Assembly: GCF_014218275.1 (NCBI RefSeq)
Contig: NZ_AP023213.1
Span: 1,776,001-1,840,000, forward strand
DNA length: 64,000 nt
Direction of reading: 5' to 3'
Source: Citrifermentans bremense
Lineage (GTDB): Bacteria > Desulfobacterota > Desulfuromonadia > Geobacterales > Geobacteraceae
Below the pieces are notes generated by a model that worked only from the letters and a program-made list of their open reading frames with translations, was not told where the DNA came from and searched no databases. A program made the position numbers and the translations under genes. Below, piece after piece: positions 2,997-17,963 of the stretch; the stretch's first letter is position 1; each line of letters begins with the position of its first letter.

Positions 2997-3002
2997 GTTG
3001 GT

Positions 3003-3182
3003 TCACCTCTTTTCAACTTTGATTAACTTCCACTCGTATTTATATTGTCGTGAGAGGCCGCTGCTGACCTCGGCTCCGTTGGTCCCGCTGGTACAAATCT
3101 TCATCCCCTCACCTTCTAAAACTTTGTTAAATGTGGTATATTCTCGCCCCCCTGAACCGGGGCATTGCTCTGGTTCAGTCAT
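3003..3182 (-). CDS. Possible small Cys-containing protein
   Basis: An open frame of 59 residues beginning MTEPEQCPGSGGREY with a second Cys in MKICTSGTNG, spaced as in small zinc-ribbon proteins. It ends 7 bp before the gene at 2996 on the same strand and is divergent from the phosphatase at 3222. The ribosome site is weak, so the gene is uncertain. Confidence 0.3.
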   Translation of the reverse strand: MTEPEQCPGSGGREYTTFNKVLEGEGMKICTSGTNGAEVSSGLSRQYKYEWKLIKVEKR

Positions 3183-3221
3183 GTCAGAGGAAACTTTTGA
3201 CGGTAACGAATGAGGCGGTGT

Positions 3222-3953
3222 ATGACTAATCGACGCACCATAGTCATTGGCGACTGCCATGGGAATCGGAAGACTGCACTGGAGATTCTGGTGTCGCTTC
3301 GTCTGGAGAGGGGGCGGGATACAGTCATTTTCCTCGGTGATGTCATCGATAGGGGGTGTGATTCGAAGGGTGTGCTGGACCTTATTATGTCAATGCAGAG
3401 AGAAGGTTTGGCAATGATGGTGCGCGGTAACCATGAGCAGATGCTGTTGGACGCAGCCAACAGTGGGATAGAGGAAGACTATCTTGAGTTCATCAACAAC
3501 GGGGGCGAAGCAACCCTACTGAGTTTCGGTGTTCCACACCCGAGCCAGATCCCCTCGGTTTATCTCAATTTCATCAGCAACACACCGCTCTTCTGGGAGA
3601 ATGCAACAAACATCTGCGTTCACGCTGGATTGCCATGTAAGTTGGTGGAGCCGATTTCGGCTGCCGACCGATGGGATATGTTGTGGACAAGGACGACTTG
3701 GACGGACCCTGCATTCCTAAATGGAAAACGGCTGGTCACCGGACATCAGATTAAATCCCTGAATGAGATCCGGGGGAGTCTGGCCACCGACCATGTCTTC
3801 ATTGACAACGGCTGCTACCTTGGTGCTGGGTGCAAGGGCGGAACCAAAGGAAATCTTGTGGCGCTGGTACTGGAGACGAACGAGCTTTATGTCCAGCCGA
3901 ACATAGACGGGGTCCCGCTACAGGAACTTCCGAGCAAAGGAGCTTCCAAATGA
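3222..3953 (+). CDS. PPP-family metallophosphatase
   Basis: 243 residues from ATG 3222 (GAGG 6 nt upstream; ATG 3210 is an alternative). All family motifs are visible near the start: GDCHG, then FLGDVIDRG, then VRGNHEQML, with later His in ICVHAGLPC and VTGHQIK. These bind the two metals of calcineurin-like phosphatases of the PP2A / lambda-phosphatase type. The family hydrolyses phosphoserine/threonine or symmetric dinucleotides; the substrate here cannot be told. It sits alone in accessory DNA next to decayed genes and may be mobile-element cargo. Confidence 0.8.
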   Translation: MTNRRTIVIGDCHGNRKTALEILVSLRLERGRDTVIFLGDVIDRGCDSKGVLDLIMSMQREGLAMMVRGNHEQMLLDAANSGIEEDYLEFINNGGEATLLSFGVPHPSQIPSVYLNFISNTPLFWENATNICVHAGLPCKLVEPISAADRWDMLWTRTTWTDPAFLNGKRLVTGHQIKSLNEIRGSLATDHVFIDNGCYLGAGCKGGTKGNLVALVLETNELYVQPNIDGVPLQELPSKGASK

Positions 3954-4803
3954 TCTCCATCGAGACACTTGAGTTCGCCCAAATCGTCGCCTCTCGATTC
4001 ACCGCCTATGACACCCGGATCTAGTCGATGCGTCAGGTCGCAGCACGGTACGCTAAATTGGCGACAGGAAACGAGGGCTGTCGGTTCTGGCTCAGGCTCG
4101 GGAATCTCTGGACCGGCTGGTCGATCAGCAGGACTACCACGCTGCGCTCGAAGTGCCGGGATTCGCTGCCGACTTACTCGCTCTTAACCGTGCTGATCTT
4201 GCTCATCAGGTGATCAATGCCTCAATTCAGATCTCCGGGGAGCTTCGACCGAAATTCGCGGCCTCGATGTTGGCCGTTACCGCAGAGGCAGCTTTTGGAA
4301 CCGGCGAGGTTGAGCTTTGCCGAGCGTTGATCGAGCAGGTGATGGAGTACGTCCATGGTCGGAGGCGATTTCGGTTCATTTACGACGACAGCTTAGACCA
4401 ACTGGTTCTGCTTCTCCTACGCCTCGCGACGAAGCGCTTGGGCTTGCCCAAAAGATAATCGGCTTCCAGAGAGCGAAAGCATTCGCGGAACAGGCAAGGT
4501 TCAGCAGGGGGGATGTTCGGGAAGCATATCTGGAAGAAGCTTTTCGAATTGCCAGATCGACGCGAGCCGAGTATTCGGTGGCAAAGGTCGCTGAGGTTCT
4601 TGGGGAAGGTGGCGAGTTCGACCATGCTCGGCAGATCGGTGCGGAGATAAACAGCAGCACGTTCAGTTCGAGGCGTTGCTGACTTTGGCTGTTCACCTTT
4701 GCAACGATATGGGGGGGTGGAAGAACGAGCGATAGAAGAAAAAGGTACGTCGCCGGATAGAGCGGCTGAACGAGCAGCCTGAAACCGAACCTGTTCAGCA
4801 CTG
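3951..4803 (+). pseudogene. Decayed gene, helical-repeat (TPR-like) remnant
   Basis: Immediately after the phosphatase an ATG (MISIETLEFAQIVASRF) opens a frame that stops after 24 residues. Further coherent protein-like stretches follow in other frames: ADLLALNRADLAHQVINASI near 4160-4330 and AYLEEAFRIARSTRAEYSVAKVAEVL near 4500-4640. These read as alpha-helical repeats of one original protein broken by frameshifts and stops. The overlap of the first ATG with the stop at 3951-3953 suggests it was once coupled to the phosphatase. The repeat call is inference. Confidence 0.4.
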
Positions 4804-4804
4804 A

Positions 4805-5171
4805 TCAGTTAGCTTTGTCTAACAGGCTCCTAAGGTACTGGTGGCCATCTCCGCTCAAAATGTCCAGCTCTCCCAAGCTCACCAGCTTCAGTTCCTCCCT
4901 CGCCCGGTTCAGGCGAGCCAGCATCGGCGGAACAATTGTGTTGGCATGTTCTACGAATTTAGCCGAATCCATCGAACAGACGGGGATCTTGTAGCCCTTC
5001 GTGCTGCTGAAAGAAACGAGCACGTACACATTCTACAGCAGTACGGGTCGATGGCACCGCACTGGTCGGCAGGAGAACTGCGGTAAGGATGTAGAAGTTG
5101 CTTACACCATCCTTCTCGGTGCTGATGCTGGTATCGCCGTATTCGTCGATGAAAACAGAAAGATCGCGCAC
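4805..5171 (-). pseudogene. Frameshifted DUF3800-like protein
   Basis: The first frame reads MRDLSVFIDEYGDTSISTEK ... FYILTAVLL, which matches the N-terminus of DUF3800 proteins (FIDESGD ... YFxLAAV, an RNase-H-like fold often found near defence genes). It ends after 70 residues, and the C-terminal part continues in another frame (SSTKGYKIPVCSMDSAKFVE, then LARLNRAREELKLVSLGEL) to 4805. The total is far shorter than the 200-300 residues usual for the family, so this is a truncated and frameshifted copy. Confidence 0.5.
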
Positions 5172-5195
5172 TACTGTGGCCCTCCTCGCTCACGA

Positions 5196-5594
5196 CTAAC
5201 TTTTCAACCCGCACCCGTTCCATTTCGGCTGTAGTTTACCAATGAGGCTGTCTTCCAGCCCGGCGGCAAGGTTGATGTGGAAATCCCCGAGGTGGAGAAG
5301 ACCATGATCCGGCAGCGCGTAGATTTCTACCGTGTCCCCAGATGTAATTAGGTCATTTAACAACCGATTCCCCTTGATGTTGGTGCTTTGGGTTGTACCG
5401 GGGTTCTGGTAGCCGTACATGCGCTTCTTCAGGGGCTGGGTGGTCTTCCCGACGTACAGAACCTCCCCACCCGATATGAACGCGTACAGCACGTTACGTG
5501 ATTCTCCTTCGCATTCCAATGCGCAGTCCAGTTTCCCTTGAGTCAGTTGCCACCGCCCGACAGGACGGAAACCAATTTTGGTCAGTCGCTCCAT
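5196..5594 (-). CDS. GIY-YIG nuclease-domain protein
   Basis: 132 residues. The segment VLYAFISGGEVLYVGKTTQP followed by LKKRMYGY is the GIY-YIG core (the first motif is LYAF, the second LYVG). The catalytic Glu is likely in AGLEDSLIGKLQPKWNG, where E-x7-P-x-W-N is the usual C-terminal pattern. A single domain without a DNA-binding module, as in restriction or homing-type GIY-YIG proteins. The ribosome site AAGGAAGG precedes ATG 5594. It stands alone between the DUF3800 remnant and an operon. Confidence 0.75.
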   Translation of the reverse strand: MERLTKIGFRPVGRWQLTQGKLDCALECEGESRNVLYAFISGGEVLYVGKTTQPLKKRMYGYQNPGTTQSTNIKGNRLLNDLITSGDTVEIYALPDHGLLHLGDFHINLAAGLEDSLIGKLQPKWNGCGLKS

Positions 5595-5697
5595 CGTTAC
5601 CTTCCTTTATATCTTAATTTTAACCGCTGCATCCTAGTTGTACTAATTGCATTGTTGGGAGATAGCTGCTAATGCAGCCGGGATCCCCCCCCCGGCC

Positions 5698-6255
5698 TTA
5701 ATGTACCCCACCCAGTATGATCGTTGATATCACAGTGAAGAAAAACGAGAACGTCACCACCAAAATTGCAGCAGCTACGATACCCACCGTGATCGCCCAG
5801 TTGTGGACGCCGCCAATCTGATGGAGTGCTGGAAACAAGTTTTGCGATGTCGAATTCCGCTTCAGGTCCGAGATTTTCCCCAACACATGCCTGTAGTATA
5901 GGTAGTTGCTGACGACTCCTACAGCGATGTGCAGGAGAATGTTGACGCCCGGAACACAGAAGACCAAGAAGGTGATTGCTGACTGCCAGTACATCTTTCG
6001 GTATAGCATCCAGACGAAGGTAAACGCGAATGCCGACCAGTTCCATGTCGGTAGGAACGTCTCAGTGCCGGTGACGTTAAACTTCCTGAAACTGCCGACG
6101 TAGTATTCGGAGTTCTTGCCAACGAATGCGCGGATTTCCTCGTCGTTCACCGTCCCTACGGCGTATCCAAACGGTGCCGAGTGCAGCATGGATCCGCAGT
6201 ACCGACACTTGATGGCTCCGTCCTGAATATTTTCCTTGCAATAGGGGCATATCAT
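5698..6255 (-). CDS. Zinc-ribbon DUF2628 membrane protein
   Basis: 185 residues. The N-terminus has two Cys pairs (CPYCKENIQDGAIKCRYCGS) forming a zinc ribbon. Then follow an aromatic-rich hydrophobic segment (WNWSAFAFTFVWMLYRKMYW) and two or three further membrane helices ending in a C-terminal TM segment. This is the layout of DUF2628 inner-membrane proteins, whose function is unknown. Its start overlaps the stop of the hydrolase gene by 4 bp (ATGA), so translation is coupled. Confidence 0.7.
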   Translation of the reverse strand: MICPYCKENIQDGAIKCRYCGSMLHSAPFGYAVGTVNDEEIRAFVGKNSEYYVGSFRKFNVTGTETFLPTWNWSAFAFTFVWMLYRKMYWQSAITFLVFCVPGVNILLHIAVGVVSNYLYYRHVLGKISDLKRNSTSQNLFPALHQIGGVHNWAITVGIVAAAILVVTFSFFFTVISTIILGGVH

Positions 6256-6764
6256 TTCAGCAACTCCTCAATAATATTATTGAGCATCTGGCCGAACAAT
6301 ATCGTCAACGTCGGAATCTGATCATTCAAGCGGTGATCGCTGTCCAGCAAATGGAGTTCCGCTCGAAACTTCCGAGCAAACCTGATCGAGTGTTCGACCG
6401 GCACGATGTCATCATTCCAGCCGTGGACAATGGTTGTCCTATCGGCGCACGGTGGCGGCTCTTGTGCTGCGTAGCCCGGAATAAAGAAAGCCGGTGCCAT
6501 CAGAAACAACCCTGCTGGCTTGATCACGGACGATGCAACCGCAGAAACATACCCACCCATGCTCGAACCAACCAGCACCGTCGTATCCTGTGATCCATTC
6601 CAGATCTCCAGCAGCCGCTTTACTCGCTCATCTGGATCAGCTAGATCGGAGTAGTCCGGGCTGACGACCTCGATCCCCTTGGATCTTGCGACATCTGCCA
6701 GTGCGAGGATCTTCGATCCCCACGGACCGGATTCCTTGCCGTGTGCGAAATATACTGTTGGCAT
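6252..6764 (-). CDS. Small alpha/beta hydrolase
   Basis: 170 residues from ATG 6764 (MPTVYFAHGKESGPWG; GGAGG 8 nt upstream, better than the upstream ATG). The nucleophile elbow GSSMGGY, the acid in GWNDDIVP and the base in DSDHRLN are all visible, so the Ser-Asp-His triad is complete. It resembles the small YqiA/YcfP-like esterase group. The substrate is unknown. The stop overlaps the start of the DUF2628 gene, with which it forms an operon. Confidence 0.75.
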   Translation of the reverse strand: MPTVYFAHGKESGPWGSKILALADVARSKGIEVVSPDYSDLADPDERVKRLLEIWNGSQDTTVLVGSSMGGYVSAVASSVIKPAGLFLMAPAFFIPGYAAQEPPPCADRTTIVHGWNDDIVPVEHSIRFARKFRAELHLLDSDHRLNDQIPTLTILFGQMLNNIIEELLK

Positions 6765-6797
6765 TGCTCCAACCTCCATTCTGACCCAGATAAATTC

Positions 6798-7253
6798 TTA
6801 GTCACTGCAATCTTCTCTGCCCCCAAACCCCATCTCTTTTTCCCAGAACCCCGGCTGGTCGTGGTGAACATACTTCATCGCATCCTGCAAACGCACGTAA
6901 TACCAGCGGACGTTTTCGTCTCGCATCGACCCATCCGGGTTTTCCAGATGCTCTCGTAGCAAACAATAATATGGATCAGCCTCATCAAATGGAACGTCAA
7001 CATAGATGTCCCCCGCATAGCCATGGTGGTAGAATCCACCAGACTCGGCGAATGGACCGCACATCGCCCATTGGATACCGTGTTGGTCCAGCCAGTCCCT
7101 GACCGCCCGACGTCTTGCGTCGGTTCCCCAGTTGTAGTCACATTTGGTTGATCGAGCGATGTCGTAAAAATCAAATGGATAGAATTGGATGTAAAGGACA
7201 TCTCGTTGTTTTTTCCTACATATAGCATCTATATGTTCGATGATTTCAGGCAT
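6798..7253 (-). CDS. Hypothetical protein
   Basis: 151 residues from ATG 7253 (AAGGAAT before it; longer starts overlap the resolvase end). Rich in Asp, Tyr and Trp, for example FYPFDFYDIARSTKCDYNWG and HHGYAGDIYVDVPFDEADP. No membrane segments and no family I recognise. It may be the first gene of the operon 7253-5698 and lies just downstream of the resolvase gene. Confidence 0.55.
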   Translation of the reverse strand: MPEIIEHIDAICRKKQRDVLYIQFYPFDFYDIARSTKCDYNWGTDARRRAVRDWLDQHGIQWAMCGPFAESGGFYHHGYAGDIYVDVPFDEADPYYCLLREHLENPDGSMRDENVRWYYVRLQDAMKYVHHDQPGFWEKEMGFGGREDCSD

Positions 7254-7294
7254 ATTAATTCCTTTACAGTCAAACATAATGACAATGCGCGTAA

Positions 7295-7888
7295 TTAACA
7301 TTTCGAATCATATTTTGCAATATCACCCACCACCGCCCGTCTCCCAGCCGCAATGATCCGATGCACCGAAGCGATCCCGATGCCAAGCTCGCGTGCCACG
7401 TCCACTTTTTTCTTCCCCTCGGCGACCAGAAGCAGGACATCTTCTGTTTTCATCCGAGCAGTCGGTTTCCGACCTTTGTACGCACCGCGCTCCTTCGCCT
7501 TGGCGATACCCTCCCGCTGACGCTCCAGCATCATGTCACGTTCAAAAGTGGCTATCCCAGCCAGCATGGTTAGCATGAGTTTCCCGGTTGGTGTCGAGGT
7601 GTCGAGGTTAATATTCAGCACCCGGAACGCAACCCCCTTCTTCTCAAGGCGATCCACGATCTCAAGAAGGTGCTGGGTACTCCGGGCGATCCTGTCCAAC
7701 TTGCAGCAGATGACGGTATCTCCTTCCCGAACCCAGTCCAACATCTTCGCCAGCTCTTCCCGGTTGGCATCGACTCCACTTGCTTTCTCTTCAAAGATCT
7801 TCTCGACACCAGCACCATGGAGCTGATCGAGCTGTGCATCCAGTTTCTGATTGTGTGTTGAAACCCTCGCGTATCCAACCACCGCCAT
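7295..7888 (-). CDS. Serine resolvase/invertase
   Basis: 197 residues. The N-terminus has the catalytic Y-A-R-V-S-T motif (YARVSTHNQKLDAQLDQL), then LDRIARS with the two conserved Arg, and the long E-helix segment ERDMMLERQREGIAKAKERG, followed by GRKPT and a helix-turn-helix (KKVDVARELGIGIASVHRII). This is a complete Tn3/Hin-type resolvase. It acts on a site usually found next to its gene; a perfect 16-bp palindrome lies 16 bp upstream. It belongs to the accessory region, next to the polymerase-like gene. Confidence 0.9.
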   Translation of the reverse strand: MAVVGYARVSTHNQKLDAQLDQLHGAGVEKIFEEKASGVDANREELAKMLDWVREGDTVICCKLDRIARSTQHLLEIVDRLEKKGVAFRVLNINLDTSTPTGKLMLTMLAGIATFERDMMLERQREGIAKAKERGAYKGRKPTARMKTEDVLLLVAEGKKKVDVARELGIGIASVHRIIAAGRRAVVGDIAKYDSKC

Positions 7889-7903
7889 ATCGCACCCCCT
7901 TCC

Positions 7904-7919
7904 ATGCTATCTTTAGCAT
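7904..7919. promoter_or_regulatory. Palindrome upstream of resolvase gene (possible res/operator)
   Basis: ATGCTA-TCTT-TAGCAT is a perfect inverted repeat 16 bp before the resolvase start. Resolvases usually bind and repress at their own recombination site, so it may be a res subsite. A looser one (TGATA-GTA-TCA) follows near 7931. Confidence 0.4.
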
Positions 7920-8080
7920 CTAAGACGTTGTGATAGTATCAAATCCAAACTTGGATTACAATCCTAGTGGTAGTTTTTTTTCCGATGTCACAGGATCTCA
8001 CTCGACCTCGGGCTATTGATACGGTGGTGGTTGGCTTCGAAGGTGTTGCTCTCGTATATCTATACACACCACTACAAATA

Positions 8081-8210
8081 AACCTTTCACATTACGCAAC
8101 TCGTTTTTGCAGGAGCATCGCCTTCTGAGATTGGCCTGATGTAATTGAGGTTGTCGGAATTACTGGCTGTTGCAGGGATCACGAAAACGAGATGCGTAAT
8201 GTGAAAGGTT
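8081..8210. repeat. 130-bp palindromic element with 27-bp arms
   Basis: The left arm (8081-8107) starts AACCTTTCACATTACGCA and the right arm (8184-8210) is its complement with a single mismatch in 27 bp. The arms are separated by 76 bp that contain the direct repeat TTGCAGG. It lies between the resolvase and the polymerase-like gene and is not coding. It could be a MITE, a structured RNA end or a recombination/replication site. Confidence 0.7.
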
Positions 8211-8238
8211 AGGTTTGTATTCTATGTATTGAATAACT

Positions 8239-9537
8239 TCATTCAACATCCTCAGATTGTTCGCAAACCATGTTCCACTTCGTGATCGGTTCCAGTCCGT
8301 ATGACGTTTCGACAACGTTCTTCATCACCTGATCGAGTTTATCGGCATGTCGTCTCTGGCAGATGAAGCTGTCGTGGACAGGGAGAATCGGAATTTCGGA
8401 AACGAGGAAGTGTTGAATCACCTGCGATGCGATGTGCGAATCGTAGAACTGGAGCATCTTACCGCAGTCGGAATTGAAGTAGTGATTGATAAGAGGATGC
8501 TTCTCGATGCACATATCAACCAGTTGGCTCGGCTTGTACTTCGGATGTCTTTTGATTTTCTTCTTGTTCTTCTTCCCCTCCTTCTCCTTCAGGTTCATGT
8601 CGCTGTTGATGCTGGCAGCAGCCTCCTTTCTGCTCTTGGCATTCAGGCATTTCAGAGTTACGGCTTTCGTTACCTTCCGCCATTCCATCCCGAGATCGGG
8701 GGCGTCGATAACATATGGATCTCCGTCGAAGAGCTTGAAACAGTCGATCCCCTCCATCAAGTAGGCGAGGAATACGTGAATCCCCTTGTAGTCGATCTCC
8801 ACCGTTGGCTCCCCGTTGATCAGGATGTGCTTGCGGTAGTTGCTTTCTATTCGTAGCCACCAGCCACCGTAGAACCGTCCTCCCAGCCGCAGACTCTCGT
8901 CGTTGAAGGTGCGGGTTACGATGCGTCGGTCGAAGTTCACCCTCTCGGGAATCGGGCAGGAAAGGGAAAGAGAACTTCTGGCAAGAAGGCGGTTGTAGTC
9001 GATTAACTGCTGGTTCCACGCGAGGGTGAACTCGTCGTGAACGAATGGTATCCGATTCTTTTCATGGTCTTTGAATTTGATGAACAATGAGTCGTCGGGG
9101 ATCCTGTGGTTGAGCGGTAATGCGATTGGCCGCTGTACGTCCTCGATCAAGGCGATCAGCGACGCATTGGCTCTCATGCGTGATGACTTATCTGCGTAGG
9201 TGAACCCTCTCCAGTCTTCAATGTAACCTGCGCTGTAAAGCGCATCTATGATGGCCGTAGTTACTCGGAAGCTCAACTGGAGTACATTCTTAGGGTTTTT
9301 GAGTCTGTAGCTCACCCCGTACCTTGAGTACCCGATACAGTCGTACCCGCTCATGTGGCAGGTGTACAATTTCGATAGAAGCAGCCTGATGTGGTTAGCC
9401 TGTTTGCTGTCCGGTCGGTACTTGTCGGCCCCGTAGACAACTGTCCAGATCGTGGAGATGATCTCTGGTGCATCGACTCTGTACCAGAATTCGCTGGTGT
9501 TCAGCGGGATCGAGTTGTCGAGTTCTTCTGGTGTCAT
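8239..9537 (-). CDS. Putative family-A DNA-polymerase-like palm protein
   Basis: 432 residues. The C-terminal half carries three motifs in the order of family-A polymerases: motif A TVEIDYKGIHVFLAYLM (compare D-Y-S-Q-I-E-x-R), motif B RKVTKAVTLKCLNA (compare R-x3-K-x3-F-G-x2-Y-G), and motif C ILPVHDSFI (compare V-H-D-E). The spacing is short, with a Lys-rich insert (KEKEGKKNKKKIKRHPKYK) between B and C. There is no 3'-5' exonuclease; the N-terminal 170 residues are unassigned. This is inference from motifs. It could replicate the element or act in repair. It is preceded and overlapped by a small gene (9534-9731). Confidence 0.55.
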   Translation of the reverse strand: MTPEELDNSIPLNTSEFWYRVDAPEIISTIWTVVYGADKYRPDSKQANHIRLLLSKLYTCHMSGYDCIGYSRYGVSYRLKNPKNVLQLSFRVTTAIIDALYSAGYIEDWRGFTYADKSSRMRANASLIALIEDVQRPIALPLNHRIPDDSLFIKFKDHEKNRIPFVHDEFTLAWNQQLIDYNRLLARSSLSLSCPIPERVNFDRRIVTRTFNDESLRLGGRFYGGWWLRIESNYRKHILINGEPTVEIDYKGIHVFLAYLMEGIDCFKLFDGDPYVIDAPDLGMEWRKVTKAVTLKCLNAKSRKEAAASINSDMNLKEKEGKKNKKKIKRHPKYKPSQLVDMCIEKHPLINHYFNSDCGKMLQFYDSHIASQVIQHFLVSEIPILPVHDSFICQRRHADKLDQVMKNVVETSYGLEPITKWNMVCEQSEDVE

Positions 9538-9731
9538 CTCGCCCCCCTGCTGTGGATGTTGCTGGATGGTTGGTTGGAGCCTGAGCCACAGAAACTTCCT
9601 AGCGTTCTTCGTGAGCTACTTTTCGACATGCTCTCCAGCATTGCACGTCTGGCATGTGCGTCGTTGCGTTCCCTTTGCGTTGCAATTTTTTCCCATTTGG
9701 AACTAATTCCAGACAGATGCTCTTCTTTCAT
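9534..9731 (-). CDS. Small hypothetical protein, operon leader
   Basis: 65 residues from ATG 9731, which has a strong ribosome site (AAGGAG, 7-nt spacing). Rich in Arg, Ser and Glu; the N-terminal half is helical (MKEEHLSGISSKWEKIATQR), the C-terminal half is Ser/Gly-rich. Its stop overlaps the start of the polymerase-like gene by 4 bp, so the two are translationally coupled. No family recognised. Confidence 0.55.
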   Translation of the reverse strand: MKEEHLSGISSKWEKIATQRERNDAHARRAMLESMSKSSSRRTLGSFCGSGSNQPSSNIHSRGAR

Positions 9732-9809
9732 TTGCGTATTCTCCTTTGATTTCCAGCGGTTACTCTGGATGCAGTTGTCCTGATCGGTTGACGGGAGCTG
9801 AAGACGCAC

Positions 9810-10596
9810 GTCCGCAACGACCGGAGAATGGCAAACCGGCCCAGATGTCCCGCATGGGGTTATGTGGTGAGGGGTAGTAACTGGAGCTACGAGAGGATCT
9901 ACTTGGTAGGGTACTCTGACCTGCGGTCAACCATCGACTGTAACCTTCATCACCAGTGACTGTTGCTCAACCTGATTTGACCGTATCACGGGTTCCGGTA
10001 ATCACCAATTAAATTATTGATTGCTGATACGGCTTCATATTGTTTTTTATGGAATCGAGATTGGATTGTTAATCCAAGATAGAATTGGAGATTTGGAAAT
10101 GAGTGGAGATGTAATGTGGCAGGAGTAAAGTTGTAGAATACAGAAAGATAAAACACACAGTCGTCACGGACGACAGAGTCATTTTAATCCAGATTCGGAC
10201 TGCTGTCTATTAAATTAGTCAGGTCGGTACAAGCGGAGTTCAGTTGCTGCTGGTGGATTGGTTGCTGGATGGTGTATCGGGAGGTAGACCAATAACAAAG
10301 GCTCCAGAGCGGGAATATGAGCGTCTGGTGCAGGTTTCGATGCAGGTTTGACGTGGCTCTGGGAGTGAAGTGTTACGGCGTGGGGGATGGACACCTGCTC
10401 CGATGCTCTGGTATATTGCCACATCAACTACCACACGACCGTGTCGTGTGAACATCAGGACGAAGCAGGGTGCTGGAAGAGGCTGTGGCTACTGTTGCAG
10501 GGGAAAGACTCGGGAAGTAGCTGGCTTACGAGTCGGTTGTGGTTTGGTGTGCTGGTTTGAAAGATGGTTGCTGAACCCCGATTTGAAGCCATCACA
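9810..10596. other. Non-coding stretch
   Basis: About 790 bp with no convincing gene. It contains short A/T-rich runs and a TTGGATT-GT-TAATCCAA near-palindrome around 10052-10068, but nothing I can name. It may hold the promoter for the operon starting at 9731. Confidence 0.4.
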
Positions 10597-10966
10597 GAAC
10601 CCAGTATCGCCCACCATGCAAAAAACCTCTGTAAAAAACAATAGCTTAAATAAGATGAGCCATGCTTGCACCCCCTTCTGTCACACAGGAGAATGCGATC
10701 ATGGCTTCTTTTTTGCGCATCAGAAACGGTAACTTCTACCTTCGAATGAGGGTTCCCGCCGACCTCCGAAAGACCTTCCCGGACACGGAGATCTTGAAGT
10801 CACTTCGCACGAAAGATCCCAAGACAGCACGGTTGTCCGCATCGTGTTTGCGCCCACGTTTCCTCGAAGTCTTCACCCTGACCCGTTGCGGGTTCATAAC
10901 TGATGATCAGGCCCGGAACCGAATCGCGGAGATGCTCAACCGGAAGCCGAAGGATGTTCTTTCAGC
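10597..10966 (+). repeat. Inverted repeat, left arm (tRNA-Val end plus integrase start)
   Basis: 370 bp that match the complement of 12052-12420 except for one extra A in a run near 10633. It begins with the last 19 bases of tRNA-Val including CCA (10597-10615), and continues through the integrase leader and its first 90 codons. Together the arms bracket the integrase gene. Confidence 0.9.
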
Positions 10967-10970
10967 TTGA
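10701..10970 (+). pseudogene. Truncated duplicate of the integrase N-terminus
   Basis: 89 codons identical to the start of the integrase at 12317, beginning MASFLRIRNGNFYLRM, with the same AGGAG ribosome site. The copy stops at TGA 10968 where the inverted repeat ends, so it lacks the catalytic domain. It could express only the DUF6538-like arm domain, which might bind att arm sites. Confidence 0.85.
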
Positions 10971-12317
10971 GGTCGTGCGATCAGAACTCGCCGATGGTTC
11001 AGTAGTTTCCCATCCTCCCCCAGCTTTCTCATCTCCCTCATAATCAAGCATGCTGATGACTTCCAGCAATAGCTTTGGTTGGTAACGCTTTCCGTATCTG
11101 CCAGATGTTATTGACGAATTTGCATGCCCTAGTATCTCTGAGATCATCACCTCTTGCACTCCGAGTTGTTTCAATCCATTGGCTACCGAATGACGAAAAC
11201 TATGAAAAGTTTTTAATTTATCATCGGTTACGTACTGGCGGTTGAACCGTGAATACCAATTTCCGAGTGCGGGGCAGAAACCATCTATGTCCCGCCGGAC
11301 GAGATCTGGCCAGAGTTTGATGTTCCCAGCGTTTCGCACTGTCTCCACAAATTCCAGAAGCCCTTTGTTGATCAGGCGAGGGTGGATCGGCACCAACCTC
11401 GTACTGGAGGCATTCTTCAGGCGCTTCTCGTCGAGTTCGTTGACGTCGAAACACCACACCCCGTCAACCTGTTTGATGTCGGCAACATGTAAGCCGCATA
11501 TCTCGCCAAGCCGCATGCCGCTGTATGCTCCGATCAGCGGTCCCCAGTAGCGTTCGGGTTTGGACGCAGGGGAGGGGAGGACCGAGATGATTTTCCTAAT
11601 GTCTTCCCTTGTGTAGGCTTTCCTCTCTTCGTCGGCCCTGCGGGTCTTTTGTATTTTCAATCCTTCAGTTGGGTTGTCGCGCCGGAAACCCTCCTTGATG
11701 CAGTGACGCATCAAGCTGCCGAGGATGGTGAGGAGCTTGTTCACAGTCGTGGTGCTCATCGGGGTGATGTTCGGTAGCGCGATCACTTGCTGGATGGTCA
11801 TGCCGGGATGCTTCTTGTAGACATGAGCTGGCAGCTTGGTCAGGGTATCTCTCACGTCTCGGACGACGTCTCGGGTGATCTTTGTAACGGATTGGTCGCC
11901 GATGATGTCGAGGAGGAGCTTGAAGTAGCTCTCATACTCCAGTGCGGTCTTCGGTGTCCATGCAGATTTGTGGTCAGAGGAGTATTGTTCGATAACTTTC
12001 TTCAAGTTTGGTGCGGACGGGGAGGGGGTAGGTTGTCCTTCAACAGCTTGGGCTGAAAGAACATCCTTCGGCTTCCGGTTGAGCATCTCCGCGATTCGGT
12101 TCCGGGCCTGATCATCAGTTATGAACCCGCAACGGGTCAGGGTGAAGACTTCGAGGAAACGTGGGCGCAAACACGATGCGGACAACCGTGCTGTCTTGGG
12201 ATCTTTCGTGCGAAGTGACTTCAAGATCTCCGTGTCCGGGAAGGTCTTTCGGAGGTCGGCGGGAACCCTCATTCGAAGGTAGAAGTTACCGTTTCTGATG
12301 CGCAAAAAAGAAGCCAT
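10962..12317 (-). CDS. Tyrosine integrase with DUF6538 N-terminus
   Basis: 451 residues from ATG 12317 (AGGAG 9 nt upstream). The N-terminus (YLRMRVPADLRKTFPDTEIL) is the DUF6538 arm domain. The catalytic domain shows Arg in SGMRLGEICGLH, the box HSFRHSVANGLKQ, His in EILGHANSSIT and the nucleophile in SGRYGKRY. It starts about 84 bp beyond the tRNA-Val 3' end, the typical place for an integrase that targets a tRNA end. Its stop codon is formed by the left inverted-repeat arm. It is presumably the integrase of the element covering 1-12.4 kb. Confidence 0.9.
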   Translation of the reverse strand: MASFLRIRNGNFYLRMRVPADLRKTFPDTEILKSLRTKDPKTARLSASCLRPRFLEVFTLTRCGFITDDQARNRIAEMLNRKPKDVLSAQAVEGQPTPSPSAPNLKKVIEQYSSDHKSAWTPKTALEYESYFKLLLDIIGDQSVTKITRDVVRDVRDTLTKLPAHVYKKHPGMTIQQVIALPNITPMSTTTVNKLLTILGSLMRHCIKEGFRRDNPTEGLKIQKTRRADEERKAYTREDIRKIISVLPSPASKPERYWGPLIGAYSGMRLGEICGLHVADIKQVDGVWCFDVNELDEKRLKNASSTRLVPIHPRLINKGLLEFVETVRNAGNIKLWPDLVRRDIDGFCPALGNWYSRFNRQYVTDDKLKTFHSFRHSVANGLKQLGVQEVMISEILGHANSSITSGRYGKRYQPKLLLEVISMLDYEGDEKAGGGWETTEPSASSDRTTSS

Positions 12318-12420
12318 GATCGCATTCTCCTGTGTGACAGAAGGGGGTGCAAGCATGGCTCATCTTATTTAAGCTATTGTTTTTACAGAGGTTTTTTGCA
12401 TGGTGGGCGATACTGGGTTC
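12052..12420 (-). repeat. Inverted repeat, right arm
   Basis: Complement of 10597-10966. It contains the true start of the integrase gene and the last 20 bases of the tRNA-Val 3' half. The 1.09 kb between the arms holds the rest of the integrase gene. Confidence 0.9.
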
Positions 12421-12450
12421 GAACCAGTGACCCCTGCCGTGTGAAGGCAG
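12401..12450 (-). tRNA. tRNA-Val(CAC), 3' half of a split gene
   Basis: On the minus strand it reads CTGCC TTCACAC GGCAG (anticodon arm), then GGGTC, ACTGG TTCGAAC CCAGT (T arm), ATCGCCC and ACCA. The D arm and 5' acceptor strand are missing here and are replaced by unrelated DNA. The missing half is at 17927-17963; joined through the shared 12 bp they make a perfect cloverleaf with a GGGCGAT/ATCGCCC acceptor stem. Confidence 0.9.
12439..12450. repeat. att core, distal copy
   Basis: GTGTGAAGGCAG, identical to 17927-17938; flanking bases differ on both sides, so the identity is exactly 12 bp. Confidence 0.8.
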
Positions 12451-12679
12451 CAAGCTTCCTCCGAGTTTAGAGGAAAATCGTCTATTTACAGGAAGTTAAG
12501 GGAGGTGTTTCGCACGAAATTGGCCCTCGGATGTGGAGAATTGGGGCGTTTGTGCCCTAATTTCTACTACGTTTCTACTACGTTCAGCTCCGAGTGGGTT
12601 TTCCACAGGCAGAGCGTAAGTGACTTCGCGAATTCCATTGTGATCCCAATTGTTTAGCCTTAGATTAAAAAAACAAACC

Positions 12680-12747
12680 AAAGAGCTGGGCGTAAAACTG
12701 CCAGCACAGCTTTTTAGGGCAGTCGGCGTCCAAGGACGTGGTTATGC
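12680..12747 (-). other. Degenerate attC-like site
   Basis: Downstream of the lipoprotein gene the minus strand has GCATAAC (as in the other attC sites) followed by ACTGCC ... GGCAGT inverted arms, but no clear GTTRRRY end box. Possibly a decayed last attC. Confidence 0.3.
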
Positions 12748-12755
12748 TTTCTATA

Positions 12756-13205
12756 TCAGTTAATGCGCTTATAACTAATTCGCCCACTCTTTACATCGAT
12801 GATTTCGAACTCATATTTTTGAAAAAAAACTGTCTTGGATTCTTTGAGATCGAACTCTAAGGCTTTGCCAAAGGCAGGCTTTTTCAGCCATGCACCATCT
12901 TTTCTGTATCCGCCGTAAGGACCTGCGACCGGCTTCATATATTCTGAATAATCTAGAACCAGCTTATCTTTAGTTGCTGATCTTACTACCAATTCAACCC
13001 GTTGGGCATCTCCATAAAATACTGAGCCGAAGTGATTATCCTCTCCAGTCATTACTTCTCTTTCGAAAAATATTTCGCCAATACTGGTGTTGAGTTGCAT
13101 GCCTGGGTTCTGCCCGACTCTATCGATATTTATTGGAGCGCCAGCACAGCCGAAAAGCATGAGTACAGCAAGTAAGACAAGACACAGTTTCGAGGTTGAT
13201 TTCAT
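12756..13205 (-). CDS. Small lipoprotein (integron cassette)
   Basis: 149 residues from ATG 13205 (GGAGG, 8-nt spacing; the longer open frame runs back through an attC site and is not credible). The signal peptide KLCLVLLAVLMLFGCAG has a lipobox L-F-G-C, so the mature protein is probably anchored to the membrane. The rest is soluble and beta-rich (NHFGSVFYGDAQRVELVVRS). No family recognised. It lies directly downstream of an attC-like site, as an integron gene cassette would. Confidence 0.65.
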   Translation of the reverse strand: MKSTSKLCLVLLAVLMLFGCAGAPINIDRVGQNPGMQLNTSIGEIFFEREVMTGEDNHFGSVFYGDAQRVELVVRSATKDKLVLDYSEYMKPVAGPYGGYRKDGAWLKKPAFGKALEFDLKESKTVFFQKYEFEIIDVKSGRISYKRIN

Positions 13206-13230
13206 TTTTGAGTCCTCCATGCAATTCCAT

Positions 13231-13284
13231 GCATAACGGCGTGGGCGGTGAGCGGGTTTCACCGCTCCACCGGCCTGGTTATGT
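13231..13284 (-). other. attC-like recombination site A
   Basis: On the minus strand it opens with ACATAAC and closes with GTTATGC, and the inner parts (GGTGGAGCGGTG / CACCGC-like) pair imperfectly with extrahelical bases, as attC sites do. The stop codon TAA of the HEPN-like gene lies inside its first box. Confidence 0.65.
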
Positions 13285-13800
13285 CCTGTTTTTCTCGTAA
13301 GCGGCAGTCCCTTCGTCAAGGAAATTCTCATAGAACCGCAAACCACCTTTTTGAGTGTCAGCGAAACAACCGCCAGTTTCTTCATTCTTCAAAAGGTAAT
13401 CATACAAGTACACGGTGCTGTTCACTGCGGTTTGAATGAGAGGAATGTGCATTACTTCTTCGGAATCGAGATGAGCAATAAATTTGTCGCGGTAGGTCCG
13501 CATCTGATTTACATAGTCATCAAATTCTGTCTCCGTCAGTCCGAGTTCCACCAATAAGTCTCTCTCAAAAGTCACATCATCTGAGATGACCTTACGCCAA
13601 AAATGCTTCCCACGGGTATCAGCGAACAACTTGCACCACTCAAGAACGGCGATGTCAATGAAATTGCCATTTGCGTTCACCCAAAACTGGCCTTTAAATT
13701 TGGATTTCCCGTTATCCCATCCAGCTTTGTAAAAAGCTAAATTTCGAAGACAGTGACAGCAGAGAATCGCTACTCGTCGAAGATGCTGGCTTCGTGTCAT
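13279..13800 (-). CDS. HEPN-like protein (AbiU2-type), integron cassette
   Basis: 173 residues, all helical. The segment MRTYRDKFIAHLDSEE has R-x5-H (RDKFIAH), the catalytic pattern of HEPN ribonucleases, and resembles the AbiU2-like group seen in abortive infection. The assignment is inference. ATG 13800 has GAGG with 5-nt spacing. The stop codon TAA is part of the following attC site and the gene begins about 50 bp after the previous one, so this is a compact single-gene cassette. Possible role: RNA cleavage in phage defence. Confidence 0.6.
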   Translation of the reverse strand: MTRSQHLRRVAILCCHCLRNLAFYKAGWDNGKSKFKGQFWVNANGNFIDIAVLEWCKLFADTRGKHFWRKVISDDVTFERDLLVELGLTETEFDDYVNQMRTYRDKFIAHLDSEEVMHIPLIQTAVNSTVYLYDYLLKNEETGGCFADTQKGGLRFYENFLDEGTAAYEKNRT

Positions 13801-13852
13801 ACATACCTCACACCATCAGAAAAGTCAGACTCCAAATAGTTCAGGTTTCCGT

Positions 13853-13906
13853 GACATAACGGTTATGAGGCGCAGCGGGTTCACCGCTGCCGCCGATGGT
13901 TAGATC
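13853..13906 (-). other. attC-like recombination site B
   Basis: Minus strand: ATCTAAC box, then GGCGGCAGCGG / CCGCTGCGCC inner arms, then GTTATGT box. The stop codon of the caspase-like gene directly abuts the first box. Strongest attC match of the three. Confidence 0.7.
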
Positions 13907-15401
13907 ACTGACTTACATCAAATGTTGATGACAGTTCAGATATAATACTCTCGCTTATATTATTCATAATTGAAACGACGGCAGCTTTCACATTGACAGT
14001 ATTCTTCAGATTACAATGAATTGTTTTCCATTGTTGCCCGTCGAGAGTTTCTCTTTGGTTCCAACTAACCTCATTTTCTTTTTCATACTTATAGAATATT
14101 GCCAATTTTGATTTCGAAAATACAAAAACAATAAACGCCTTATACCATGATATATTTTGTTCTTTTGGCACGAGATTTATTTCTATTGCGTTGCATGGAG
14201 CAGGTGCCGTTAATTGGAGACCATCAACAACATCTCTGTACTTTGTAACCGTTTTGTACTCATATTTCTTTTGTCTCCCGAACATTCTTGATACAGAAAT
14301 TGCTGCGTATATATCAGAATAATCATCTTGTATTTCAACCCTTTCCTTTGCTTCGTACTCCTCCTCTGTATATGTCACTTTTGCAAAGTATGGCTCTTTC
14401 TCTTCAGACAGCCAACTGCCGATTGCTTTTATACCAGTAATGTCATTATAGCTTTTCTTTATTTCAATATTGACATCATATAACTGCTTTAATAGGTCAC
14501 CAAAATCGTGAGCTGTGACAGTATCAACCATACCTGATAAGGACATTTGAGCTTCTTGCTCGCTGCAAAACTCAATTGCTTTTGTTTTAATTGTTTCTAC
14601 TAACCTAGTTTCAAATGATTGAGCTGGCAACTGGCCAGCCTCATTGTTTTGTTGCTTTGTTTCTTGATTCTCATCTGAACCTTTTATTGCCTTTATCAAA
14701 TCATCAGAAACTTCACAAAAAACCTCTATGTTATGTGCTTGTTGAATAAACAGTGGAGTTTGTCGGGATGTGACTGCCTTGTCATCGGATATGAAGGCCA
14801 TTAAATCACGATATCGAACCGTCTTCCCAGAATAGGAAACAATTGCGTCTGCAAAGCTTTTTGTAAATAGGCTGTAATCTTTTACAGCAACGGAGTTTTC
14901 TGACGACGTGCATGAGAAGAAAAAATATGTCTTATCAAAATTTGATGTAGCAGATTTCTTAAATATATCCTCTAAGTCTCCAACAGACTTAATATATTCT
15001 GTTCCTGCCTGACAAGCGTCTACTACTTTAATGGCTAGAGCTGGTGATAATGATTTGAGCATTGAATCTAACTCACTGTTCCGCAGAGAGGTCTGTTCAA
15101 TTTTGTCTTTAACGAAATCAGAAAATACGAAAAGAAAATCACCGGAATATCTCGTTCCGTGTCCTGTATAATAAAAAAATACCTCTTCAATTTTTTGACT
15201 TTGATATTTCCTAATAAAGGTAGCTATGTCACTTTTAGCATCGCTACCTTTTGGGCTATTCCCAATCACGATATAATCATCGTATTTACTGGCGCCTTTG
15301 ATAATATCCGTAACCATTCGGAGATCATTTTCACAAGGTGGCAATGCGACCTCATGGTCATACTTGGACACCCCTATCAAAATCGCAATTTTTTTGCCCA
15401 T
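13905..15401 (-). CDS. Caspase-like (peptidase C14) protein, integron cassette
   Basis: 498 residues from ATG 15401 (GAGGTGG, good spacing). Residues 1-230 are a caspase-type domain: strand MGKKIAILIGVSKYD, catalytic His81 in FFYYTGHGT, catalytic Cys130 in VVDACQAG, and FFSCTSSENS after it. Residues 260-498 form a soluble domain I do not recognise, perhaps a sensor or effector part. Bacterial caspase-like proteases are often effectors of abortive-infection systems. The gene is AT-rich compared with the core. It is a cassette: the stop touches attC-B, and attC-C lies about 35 bp upstream. Confidence 0.85.
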   Translation of the reverse strand: MGKKIAILIGVSKYDHEVALPPCENDLRMVTDIIKGASKYDDYIVIGNSPKGSDAKSDIATFIRKYQSQKIEEVFFYYTGHGTRYSGDFLFVFSDFVKDKIEQTSLRNSELDSMLKSLSPALAIKVVDACQAGTEYIKSVGDLEDIFKKSATSNFDKTYFFFSCTSSENSVAVKDYSLFTKSFADAIVSYSGKTVRYRDLMAFISDDKAVTSRQTPLFIQQAHNIEVFCEVSDDLIKAIKGSDENQETKQQNNEAGQLPAQSFETRLVETIKTKAIEFCSEQEAQMSLSGMVDTVTAHDFGDLLKQLYDVNIEIKKSYNDITGIKAIGSWLSEEKEPYFAKVTYTEEEYEAKERVEIQDDYSDIYAAISVSRMFGRQKKYEYKTVTKYRDVVDGLQLTAPAPCNAIEINLVPKEQNISWYKAFIVFVFSKSKLAIFYKYEKENEVSWNQRETLDGQQWKTIHCNLKNTVNVKAAVVSIMNNISESIISELSSTFDVSQ

Positions 15402-15435
15402 AAAATCCACCTCAATTTTGATTATTTATTTCATG

Positions 15436-15499
15436 ATCTAACTACTTATTGAGCGGTTCACGCGCGCGTGAACCGCTGATCGTCCTAAATCGGTTATTC
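15436..15499 (-). other. attC-like recombination site C
   Basis: Minus strand: AATAACC box, a strong inner stem AGCGGTTCACG / CGTGAACCGCT, and a closing GTTAGAT box. It belongs to a cassette that would lie upstream, where no gene is visible. Confidence 0.55.
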
Positions 15500-16230
15500 T
15501 ACCGGATCCTTACAAGTTCGACAAAATCCCGTTCTGCAAAGATGACCCAAACGAAGTCATTTGGATAGATTATCGTATTGAAAGGCTTATTTATCGGGAT
15601 AAATGTTCCAACTGGCTTGTTGGGCGGTTTTCTGTACAACATCCCGTGACATCCTCAGCAAGCTGAATTTATAACGGTTTTAGGCAGTGGTCAATGAAAA
15701 ATAGCTTATCATTATCCCGATCACTTTACGCCTCTAAAAATTGGAAACCACTTCGGGTGATGTCTTTACAGGACTAGATCGTATCGTCCGAATCGCGTTG
15801 ATGTGCTGGGTAGGATACGGACTGATTTCAACATCCTAGGCGGGGTCGAGTGGGTAGGCCTTGTTGAAGTTCGTGAATGATACGGCTGATCGAGAAGGTG
15901 TCGTGGAAGATGACGCAGTTGGCGACAAGATGATTGAGCGAGGATCAAGGATAGGATGTCAGTGATCGCAAAAAAATCCACACTATATTTTTGTTTGGAT
16001 GATTTTGTCACCCATTGAGTTTCCACACCGAAATTCGAAGAGCCGAATTTTTTAGTGAGTCATTCTAGCAACAAAGGTAGGCGATATGAGGCAGAGAGGT
16101 GTGGCTGGAGACAGGACTCTATTTAGATAGCTGAATCGAAATGGTCCAAGTATCCTCAGGGAAATGGTCATTCAGCGGTTGGTCAGGGGAAGTGAGAGTG
16201 TGGGCGATGGAAAGATGGCATTGAATTGAA
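15500..16230. other. Non-coding stretch in the element
   Basis: About 730 bp between the attC array and the tRNA terminator. No convincing gene on either strand; it may hold the array promoter and the remains of a cassette. No integron integrase or attI can be recognised. Confidence 0.4.
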
Positions 16231-16260
16231 AAAGGCTAAGACGTATGTCTTAGCCTTTTT
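16231..16260 (-). terminator. Rho-independent terminator after tRNA-Val
   Basis: AAGGCTAAGAC and GTCTTAGCCTT form a near-perfect stem with T runs on both sides. It follows the tRNA on the minus strand. Confidence 0.85.
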
Positions 16261-16271
16261 AGTGGTGTTGG

Positions 16272-16343
16272 TGGGCGCGGCAGGGATTGAACCTGCGACC
16301 CTTGCCGTGTGAAGGCAATGCTCTCCCACTGAGCTACGCGCCC
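16272..16343 (-). tRNA. tRNA-Val(CAC), complete, carried by the element
   Basis: Full cloverleaf: acceptor GGGCGCG / CGCGCCC, D arm GCTC/GAGC, anticodon arm TTGCC-TTCACAC-GGCAA with anticodon CAC, and T arm GCAGG-TTCAATC-CCTGC; CCA follows at 16269-16271. It reads GUG codons. Several stems differ from the split host gene, so it is a diverged copy and not a simple duplication. It sits between the element integrase and the cassette array. Confidence 0.95.
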
Positions 16344-16456
16344 TAACAAACTCGTAGCAGACTACCAGAAGTAATAGAACCGAGTCAAGCATAAATCCAT
16401 TTTGCAAGTTGAACGGTCCAAATGCATCGCGCTCTAGAGCCAGATTCTCCGAGATG

Positions 16457-17779
16457 TTACTCTTTAGTCTGGTCAACTTCGGTATCACCAGGTACCTCAT
16501 AATCAAGATATGGGATGTCAAAACTTCTCCTCATAGTAGCCTCCGATTTCCTTGTTTCCAGAGAAGGATCAACCTGAATTAACGCGTATGCAGGGACTTC
16601 TGGTCGTTCGGCCCGGTGGGGAAGTTCATGGCGGTTGAGATTTTTGAATTGTGAACCAAGCCAATCCACAGGGCCTCTCAGATTGTTTGGAGCGAGGTGA
16701 GCATACCTCATAGTCATTTTCATGTCAGCATGACCCAAAAGTTCGCGAACCCTATTGAGATCCACCCCGTGGATAACAAGTTGACTGGCGAAGGTGTGTC
16801 GAAGATCATGGAATCTGAAATCAACGAGTTTCGTTCGGGCCACCGCTGCGGTGAATGATCGGGGAACATTTTTGTAAGGAGCTCCCGTTAATCTATTGAA
16901 AAATAAGTATGGTATGCCTTCAACCTGGACCATGTTGCTGAGAATTCGCCACAGCTTTTCACTGATCGGGATTTGTCTCATTCGTTTATTCTTGGAGCTC
17001 TGGGTCTCAACAAAAATAAAGCCCTGTTCAAGGTCTACGTATGGCAGACGCTTCGTTTTACCATATTTCATGGTAATCATGTGTGGGGACCAGCAGAGGT
17101 TCAAAATCTCTCGCTTACGCATTCCCGTACATAGCGCTGTGATTACAATAGGTTGAAGGTGCAGATCGCAATTTTGGATCAACTTTTCGGCTTCAGCCAC
17201 TGAGATAAATCTAAGGCGAGCTGAGTCATCTTCATATCGATCGAGCTTTCTTAACTTGATAAGGGTGTTGTTGTCCAAAAACTCCCAATCAACGGCTTTT
17301 CGTAACATATGCATAAAAACATTGATTTTTTTTTCGATAGTTGAATTTTTCAGTCCCCTCTTTCGACAAGAACTCTGGAACATTTCTAGATCGGACAGTT
17401 TTATATCTTTTAACTTCTTTTCACCGAACGCTGCTTCAAGCTGCGTATATATATACTTACGTAATCGATCATAATCCTCGTACCGACCTTCAGCATACTC
17501 CTTGTATTTTGCGGTAAGTTCCTTGAAATATACGACCTCTGAGCGGTCCGTTTTCCTTAGACCAAATTTTTCTTCAAGGATTGCTTTTTGGGACGATTCG
17601 TAAACCTTAAGTGCGTCCTTTTTATTTGAGCATTTCGTAGAGAATTGGACGCGCTTGCCGTCCTCATTAGTTATGGTCATCCAGATATACCTGGAGTCTT
17701 TCCGCCAATAGAGGCCGGTTGGGAGTTTGGGCTTTTCAGCCAATTTGTTGTTTTTACGTTTTCCTCTGGCCGTGTCCAT
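16457..17779 (-). CDS. Tyrosine integrase of the tRNA-Val-splitting element
   Basis: 440 residues from ATG 17779 (GGAG, 8-nt spacing). The first 180 residues are arm and core-binding domains; the catalytic domain has Arg in CTGMRKREILNLCW, the box HDLRHTFASQLV, His in ELLGHADMKMT and nucleophile Tyr in MRYAHLAP. It lacks the extra helix patch of integron integrases and resembles phage-type enzymes. It starts 148 bp inside the tRNA 5' half, and transcripts from the tRNA promoter could read into it. It is presumed to recombine the 12-bp anticodon-arm core. Confidence 0.9.
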   Translation of the reverse strand: MDTARGKRKNNKLAEKPKLPTGLYWRKDSRYIWMTITNEDGKRVQFSTKCSNKKDALKVYESSQKAILEEKFGLRKTDRSEVVYFKELTAKYKEYAEGRYEDYDRLRKYIYTQLEAAFGEKKLKDIKLSDLEMFQSSCRKRGLKNSTIEKKINVFMHMLRKAVDWEFLDNNTLIKLRKLDRYEDDSARLRFISVAEAEKLIQNCDLHLQPIVITALCTGMRKREILNLCWSPHMITMKYGKTKRLPYVDLEQGFIFVETQSSKNKRMRQIPISEKLWRILSNMVQVEGIPYLFFNRLTGAPYKNVPRSFTAAVARTKLVDFRFHDLRHTFASQLVIHGVDLNRVRELLGHADMKMTMRYAHLAPNNLRGPVDWLGSQFKNLNRHELPHRAERPEVPAYALIQVDPSLETRKSEATMRRSFDIPYLDYEVPGDTEVDQTKE

Positions 17780-17926
17780 GTATTATCTCCCACAAAAGCA
17801 GCTACTTATATACAGTACGCTGTTGGCCATAGGAATTCAAGCTGCTTTTTACGTTACCAGCTACGTTTTAAGTAACAAAATGAAAAAGCCCGTAATAACT
17901 ATGTATTACAGGCGTTGTAGACAGTT

Positions 17927-17938
17927 GTGTGAAGGCAG
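17927..17938. repeat. att core, proximal copy
   Basis: GTGTGAAGGCAG, identical to 12439-12450. Confidence 0.8.
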
Positions 17939-17963
17939 TGCTCTCCCGCTGAGCTAATCGCCC
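17927..17963 (-). tRNA. tRNA-Val(CAC), 5' half of a split gene
   Basis: Minus strand: GGGCGAT TA GCTC AGCGGGA GAGC A CTGCC TTCACAC, and then the sequence turns into element DNA. Acceptor, D arm and the left anticodon strand are intact. Its other half lies 5.5 kb away at 12401-12450. Confidence 0.9.

What the first reader, a model, noticed from the sequence alone, without database searches (positions are those of the whole stretch)
12401..17963. A tRNA-Val(CAC) gene split in the anticodon arm by a 5.5-kb element that carries its own tRNA-Val(CAC)
The 5' half (17927-17963) and 3' half (12401-12450) share exactly 12 bp and rejoin to a perfect cloverleaf. Most tRNA-targeting integrases insert so that the gene is rebuilt from the element; here the halves stay apart and the host gene is broken. 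A complete, diverged tRNA-Val with the same anticodon lies inside at 16272-16343. The simplest reading is a rescue tRNA that lets the element disrupt a host tRNA. Read-through from the intact tRNA promoter may also drive the integrase 148 bp inside. Sequence shows the halves, core and second gene; the rescue role is inference.
Basis: partly seen in the sequence, partly recalled or inferred. Interest (0 to 1): 0.88.

Follow-up and report, generated by a model that had tools for sequence, protein, structure and literature searches.

The report
Mobile element replaces tRNA it breaks
A small piece of mobile DNA has cut a bacterium's native valine tRNA gene (anticodon CAC) in two and carries a complete substitute gene of its own, a trick demonstrated in some phages but seen here in an element with no recognisable phage structural genes.

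Summary
A 5,488-bp element (E1) sits in the anticodon arm of the native tRNA-Val(CAC) gene. The halves share exactly 12 bp and rejoin to a 75-nt gene found letter for letter in 18 of 47 other family genomes; the empty site is intact in a same-genus genome. The only complete Val-CAC gene found in this genome is E1's own: 62/75 identical to the native one, its five changed stem pairs all compensatory, with a hairpin terminator behind it. Neither junction rebuilds a tRNA, whereas classical elements in sister genomes use the same anticodon loop and do rebuild it. E1 therefore fits 'tRNA-dependent lysogeny', demonstrated in mycobacteriophages (2024), but looks non-phage; its other cargo is three probable integron-type cassettes. 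No function was tested. Verdict: new variant of a known kind.

The parts
17927..17963 (-). 5' half of native tRNA-Val(CAC) with the 12-bp core (17927-17938): attL
   Evidence: identical to nt 1-37 of the intact gene in relatives
12401..12450 (-). 3' half of native tRNA-Val(CAC) with the 12-bp core (12439-12450): attR
   Evidence: identical to nt 26-75 of the intact gene in relatives
17888..17913 (-). terminator-like hairpin (10 pairs) and T run just inside attL, insulating int1 from the native tRNA promoter
   Evidence: one of 7 found, 5.4 expected by chance; -13.2 kcal/mol stretch, z -3.57, 0 of 200 shuffles as good
17861..17867 (-). AACGTAG, possible arm-type integrase site in the left arm
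   Evidence: no chance control made
12567..12584 (-). two AACGTAG copies 11 nt apart in the right arm (12567-12573, 12578-12584), possible arm-type sites
   Evidence: no chance control made
16457..17779 (-). int1, tyrosine recombinase, 440 aa; R221, H324, R327, H350, Y359 fit the catalytic set (motif recalled)
   Evidence: (Phage_integrase 3.1e-25)
16269..16343 (-). element's own complete tRNA-Val(CAC), CCA encoded
   Evidence: (70.5 bits)
16359..16388 (-). weak promoter-like TTGACT-18-TAGTCT upstream of the element tRNA
   Evidence: read from the sequence; not reported by the consensus scan
16229..16260 (-). hairpin terminator after the element tRNA
   Evidence: -19.3 kcal/mol, z -9.43; not listed by the scan
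13861..15442 (-). probable gene cassette 1 (GTTAGAT ... ATCTAAC): 501-aa caspase-like protein, ORF 13905-15410
13238..13860 (-). probable gene cassette 2 (GTTATGT ... ACATAAC): 173-aa protein of unknown function, ORF 13279-13800
12690..13237 (-). probable gene cassette 3 (GTTATGC ... GCATAAC); the ORF as listed, 12756-13385 (-), starts upstream of the cassette boundary; I took the 160-aa part 12756-13238, which would be lipoprotein-like (my reading). The last attC-like site is poor
   Evidence: (12690-12790 z -0.58 and -0.16)

Best explanation
E1 is a small integrative mobile element whose tyrosine integrase recombines a 12-bp core (anticodon stem strand plus 7-nt anticodon loop) of tRNA-Val(CAC). 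Its attP lacks the tRNA 3' half, so insertion destroys the host gene, and E1 supplies a complete, diverged tRNA-Val(CAC) with its own terminator that takes over reading of GUG codons. A terminator just inside attL isolates the element from the orphaned native promoter. Shown by sequence: disruption, 12-bp core, empty site in relatives, sole remaining Val-CAC gene, its intact fold. Inferred: that int1 made the insertion, that the element tRNA is expressed and charged, and that it compensates for the loss. A consequence, also inferred: E1 can be lost cleanly only by precise excision.
For: Exact halves and 12-bp overlap; intact gene in 46 of 47 other family genomes at full length, 18 identical; contiguous flanks at the empty site in G014. 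No other Val-CAC among 49 tRNA matches, by exact anticodon-arm pattern or by similarity. The element tRNA folds as a full cloverleaf; of its 13 differences from the native gene 10 form five pairs changed on both sides and still paired, 3 lie outside stems. Swapping halves between the two genes breaks 2-3 stem pairs, so the element gene evolved as a unit. int1 belongs to a family that sits beside tRNAs: 22 of 41 fetched homolog loci carry an ARAGORN tRNA, all 22 convergent with the integrase. Classical elements with a 47-49 nt 3'-half copy occupy the same anticodon loop in G011 and G028, and in G078. Precedent with genetics: PMC10865867, cores 8-17 bp against 12 here. GUG is 221 of 535 valine codons in 14 ORFs of the window (crude).
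Against: A Val-UAC gene is present and could read GUG by wobble; 12 of 103 good-quality order genomes lack a Val-CAC pattern match, so the tRNA may be dispensable. No promoter above chance: 10 promoter-like sites in the region against 11.1 expected, none at the element tRNA. No second E1-like element was found: none of 41 homolog loci has the tRNA in E1's orientation; no close int1 relative in viral contigs or in 84,980 species genomes (6 loci, mostly 26-36% identity).
Confidence: 0.82

Rival explanations
1. The internal tRNA is a passenger: E1 picked it up by chance and the cell lives on Val-UAC, so there is no rescue.
For: Val-UAC present; some order genomes have no Val-CAC pattern match; promoter not supported by the scan.
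Against: Same isotype and same anticodon as the very gene that is broken; five compensatory stem pairs keep the fold; Val-CAC pattern in 46 of 48 family genomes; direct experimental precedent in phages.
Confidence: 0.12
2. Two classical half-replacing insertions one after the other: a 3.9-kb element gave the 3' half and a 1.6-kb int1 element gave the 5' half of the internal tRNA, so the tRNA was never lost.
For: Three copies of the anticodon-arm core in the same direction; classical elements do use this loop in sister genomes.
Against: The intermediates would be chimeras with 2-3 broken stem pairs; the internal halves match neither native half (33 of 37 and 41 of 50 identical's 89.2% and 81.6%); the 3.9-kb part has no integrase gene.
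Confidence: 0.04
3. A split tRNA rejoined in trans, or an assembly error.
For: Halves are undecayed.
Against: Both halves carry the 12-bp core, so they overlap; a terminator follows the 5' half; no tRNA-like hybrid at either junction; the genome is a single contig and the flanks are syntenic with G014. Raw reads not available.
Confidence: 0.02

Closest known systems
tRNA-dependent lysogeny of actinobacteriophages (Fionnbharth, cluster L, Gaia; PMC10865867, abstract, passages and section 10 read)
   Same: Tyrosine integrase; attB in a tRNA gene; short core (8-17 bp in that table, 12 here); no reconstruction; element tRNA of the broken isotype; relatives of the integrase that do reconstruct. Gaia's tRNA lies downstream of int, as here.
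   Different: Those are complete phages of Actinobacteria with tested tRNA requirement. E1 is 5.5 kb, has no recognised phage structural gene, is in an unrelated phylum-level group, targets Val-CAC, and is untested.
Sinorhizobium meliloti prophages like Lo5R7ANS in tRNA-Leu(UAG) (PMC11476347, passages read)
   Same: Central part of a tRNA gene disrupted; substitute tRNA diverged (80.6% to host there, 83% here).
   Different: Prophages; different isotype and host group.
Classical tDNA islands (Islander, PMC4383910, passages read)
   Same: Tyrosine integrase, anticodon-centred site, directly repeated core.
   Different: Those carry a tRNA fragment that restores the target; E1 does not. E2 beside it does behave classically.
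Integron gene cassettes without integron integrase (CALIN)
   Same: Three one-gene units in one direction with 7-nt complementary ends and hairpin joints.
   Different: attC activity untested; the third site is poor; no published attC model was run.

Membership tests
tRNA-dependent lysogeny / integration | tyrosine-family integrase | tested here: met
tRNA-dependent lysogeny / integration | short attP/attB core inside a host tRNA gene, tRNA not rebuilt at either junction | tested here: met
   12-bp core; no tRNA at junctions
tRNA-dependent lysogeny / integration | element encodes a tRNA of the disrupted isotype | tested here: met
   Val-CAC at 16269-16343
tRNA-dependent lysogeny / integration | element is a temperate phage | tested here: not met
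   Of four E1 proteins only int1 has a PHROG with known function; the caspase-like protein matches phrog_36966 (unknown function, 2.2e-83) and the 160-aa protein weakly phrog_1353; no E1-like phage by DNA apart from tRNA matches
tRNA-dependent lysogeny / integration | element tRNA is required for viable integrants | not testable with these tools
   needs genetics; Val-UAC may suffice
Classical tDNA-restoring genomic island | integration regenerates an intact target tRNA | tested here: not met
Integron cassette array lacking integrase (CALIN) | consecutive attC-like sites bounding single genes | tested here: inconclusive
   Strict three-cassette chain in 1 of 1500 simulated sequences, but criteria set after seeing the sites; a looser test was unimpressive, 75 of 300
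Integron cassette array lacking integrase (CALIN) | no integron integrase nearby | tested here: met
   TIGR02249: no match over cut-off in the genome; the weak matches ring in all 14 controls

The most novel reading that the evidence does not exclude
tRNA-dependent integration is not confined to phages: E1 is a minimal non-phage carrier of gene cassettes that destroys a host tRNA, replaces it with a foreign one and insulates itself from the orphaned promoter, so that the host is tied to the element by its decoding of GUG codons.
Probability: 0.55. Interest if true: 0.7.

Novelty: new variant of a known kind. Interest (0 to 1): 0.6.

Why it matters
If the replacement works, a mobile element holds part of the host's decoding machinery hostage: it is protected against random deletion, and it swaps a conserved tRNA for a foreign one by horizontal transfer. 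It would extend tRNA-dependent integration beyond the phages in which it was shown, offer a simple signature to look for (orphan tRNA halves with a short shared core around an element carrying the same anticodon), and, through sister genomes with classical elements in the same anticodon loop, allow a direct comparison of the two strategies.

Tried and rejected
Considered and rejected: trans-spliced split tRNA; assembly error; two nested classical insertions; read-through from the native promoter into int1. A special immunity meaning for the changed outer pair of the element tRNA's anticodon stem (U-A instead of C-G) is only an idea: among 83 fetched tRNA copies, some genomes counted twice, three have it, one being E1's own, so it also occurs naturally.

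Led nowhere: close relatives of int1 in viral contigs (5 pattern stretches, none a relative) and of the caspase-like protein there (11 stretches, none); int1 in plasmids (2 Vibrio records under 60% identity) and phages (146 records, all under 60%); E1 DNA in phages (2 records, tRNA only) and plasmids (14 records, 10 rows seen, tRNA region only); two viral contigs with a 32-nt match to the element tRNA are a different, classical arrangement; the caspase-like protein has no phage tblastn match, 5 plasmid records, and a Salinivibrio copy shows no clear cassette ends; an attC-like pattern hit only E1 among 48 family genomes. The source of the element tRNA was not found: best 91% matches lie in other families of the order and class.
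Full report
Observation. The window is C1:1776001-1840000 of a 4,458,493-bp single-contig genome. On the minus strand the 5' half (17963-17927) and 3' half (12450-12401) of a tRNA-Val(CAC) gene overlap by exactly 12 nt and join to a 75-nt gene; the intervening element, E1, is 5,488 bp with one core. The joined gene matches 18 of 47 other family genomes at 100% and has full-length matches in 46 of 47. In the same-genus genome G014 the two flanks of the window's genome meet around the intact gene: the right flank aligns up to tRNA nt 37 at 85% identity, and the left flank, taken from beyond the neighbouring island E2, continues at 83-84%. The promoter-like TTGACA-17-TATTTA before the 5' half resembles that of G014 and G015, and the native terminator now lies 24.5 kb away, left of E2.

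The remaining tRNA. Rfam gives 49 tRNA matches in the genome. ARAGORN on the fetched stretches and window assigns all 49: one Val-UAC, one Val-GAC and one Val-CAC, which is the element's. The element tRNA differs from the native one at 13 of 75 positions: 10 make five stem pairs changed on both sides, all still paired, and 3 lie outside stems. It folds as a full cloverleaf and scores 70.5 bits. A strong hairpin with a T run follows. A promoter is only weakly suggested from the sequence, and the scan shows no excess of promoter-like sites (10 found, 11.1 expected).

Why this is not the usual island. In G011 and G028 (same genus) and G078 (same order) an intact tRNA-Val(CAC) is followed 5-11 kb downstream by copies of its 3' half (nt 27-75, 28-75, and 29-75 twice), the mark of classical anticodon-loop elements; in G015 a copy (30-75) lies on another contig. 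Integrases distantly like int1 lie beside the G011 and G028 remnants (30% identity). Among 41 fetched loci of int1 homologs in family, order and phylum, 22 have an ARAGORN tRNA, in all 22 convergent with the integrase; in the other 19 none was called, though several contain tRNA fragments. Six further loci from named genomes were not counted. E1 alone has the integrase leading away from the 5' half and a codirectional tRNA behind it. As summarised in PMC8371274 (passages), the 7-bp anticodon loop and its flanking stem match a tyrosine-recombinase overlap and core; E1's 12 bp are one stem strand plus the loop, with nothing of the 3' half.

Mechanism. Most likely int1 inserted E1 by recombining the 12-bp core, thereby destroying the host gene, and the element tRNA replaced it. 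AACGTAG occurs once in the left arm and twice in the right arm, as arm-type sites would, without a chance control. How badly the cell needs the tRNA is open: Val-UAC could read GUG; a Val-CAC pattern is found in 46 of 48 family genomes but in 91 of 103 good-quality order genomes; GUG is 221 of 535 valine codons in 14 window ORFs chosen by a crude GC3 filter. Charging, expression and rescue are inference.

Cargo. Besides int1 and the tRNA, E1 (42% G+C against 57% in window 18001-64000) holds a caspase-like protein (Peptidase_C14 1.4e-14), a 173-aa and a 160-aa protein without confident Pfam families. These three genes are bounded by 7-nt complementary ends, GTTAGAT/ATCTAAC, GTTATGT/ACATAAC and GTTATGC/GCATAAC, with hairpins at the joints, as in integron gene cassettes. 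A strict chain of three occurs in 1 of 1500 simulated sequences, but that criterion was set after a looser test that gave 75 of 300, and the third joint folds poorly. The ORF listed for the third unit starts upstream of its boundary. No integron integrase passes its cut-off in the genome. PHROGs gives the caspase-like protein a full-length match of unknown function (phrog_36966, 2.2e-83), so a viral relative exists, although tblastn found none in 50,697 phage records.

Comparison. PMC10865867 describes tRNA-dependent lysogeny: tyrosine integrase, 8-17 bp core, no reconstruction, cognate phage tRNA required, with related phages that do reconstruct (abstract, passages and section 10). It mentions Lj965 of Lactobacillus johnsonii as a likely case. 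PMC11476347 reports two S. meliloti prophages that inactivate tRNA-Leu(UAG) and bring a diverged substitute (passages). E1 meets the architectural criteria but not the phage criterion; the requirement for the tRNA is untested. I found no report of this in a non-phage element in searches; of the 18 papers I saw mainly the listing, and the library omits most subscription journals.

Verdict. The finding is real and correctly read in its main point; its principle is published. It is a new variant: a 5.5-kb, apparently non-phage, cassette-bearing element that breaks and replaces tRNA-Val(CAC).

Noticed in passing
C1:1763861-1788420 (window 1-12420 and 12.1 kb to its left, in L038): A second island, E2 (24.5 kb), uses the 3' end of the same tRNA gene: 26-bp direct repeats including its last 20 nt, int2 at 10962-12356 (-), and HNH/type IV restriction-like genes among those scanned. 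Order of arrival of E1 and E2 is undetermined.
   Followed up: partly
window 7862-10966: Inverted copy inside E2 of its own two ends: 2,761 bp of the left end (100%) and 370 bp of the right end (99.7%), joined at the att core like a piece of the circular form (attP junction near 10597-10622), including the first ~100 codons of int2.
   Followed up: partly
window 12690-15503: Three probable integron-type gene cassettes, with a fourth attC-like site upstream of the first (about 15436-15503), in an element without an integron integrase.
   Followed up: partly
L143 (G078): Intact tRNA-Val(CAC) followed by two successive 3'-half copies (6700-6746 and 8159-8205), suggesting tandem classical elements.
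   Followed up: no
L050 (G007): Very small classical element: int1-like integrase between an intact tRNA-Thr(CGT) and a 3'-half copy about 2.6 kb away.
   Followed up: no
G000 tRNA list: No Ile-GAT or Ala-TGC tRNA among the 49 matches, perhaps because ribosomal operons are withheld or missed.
   Followed up: no
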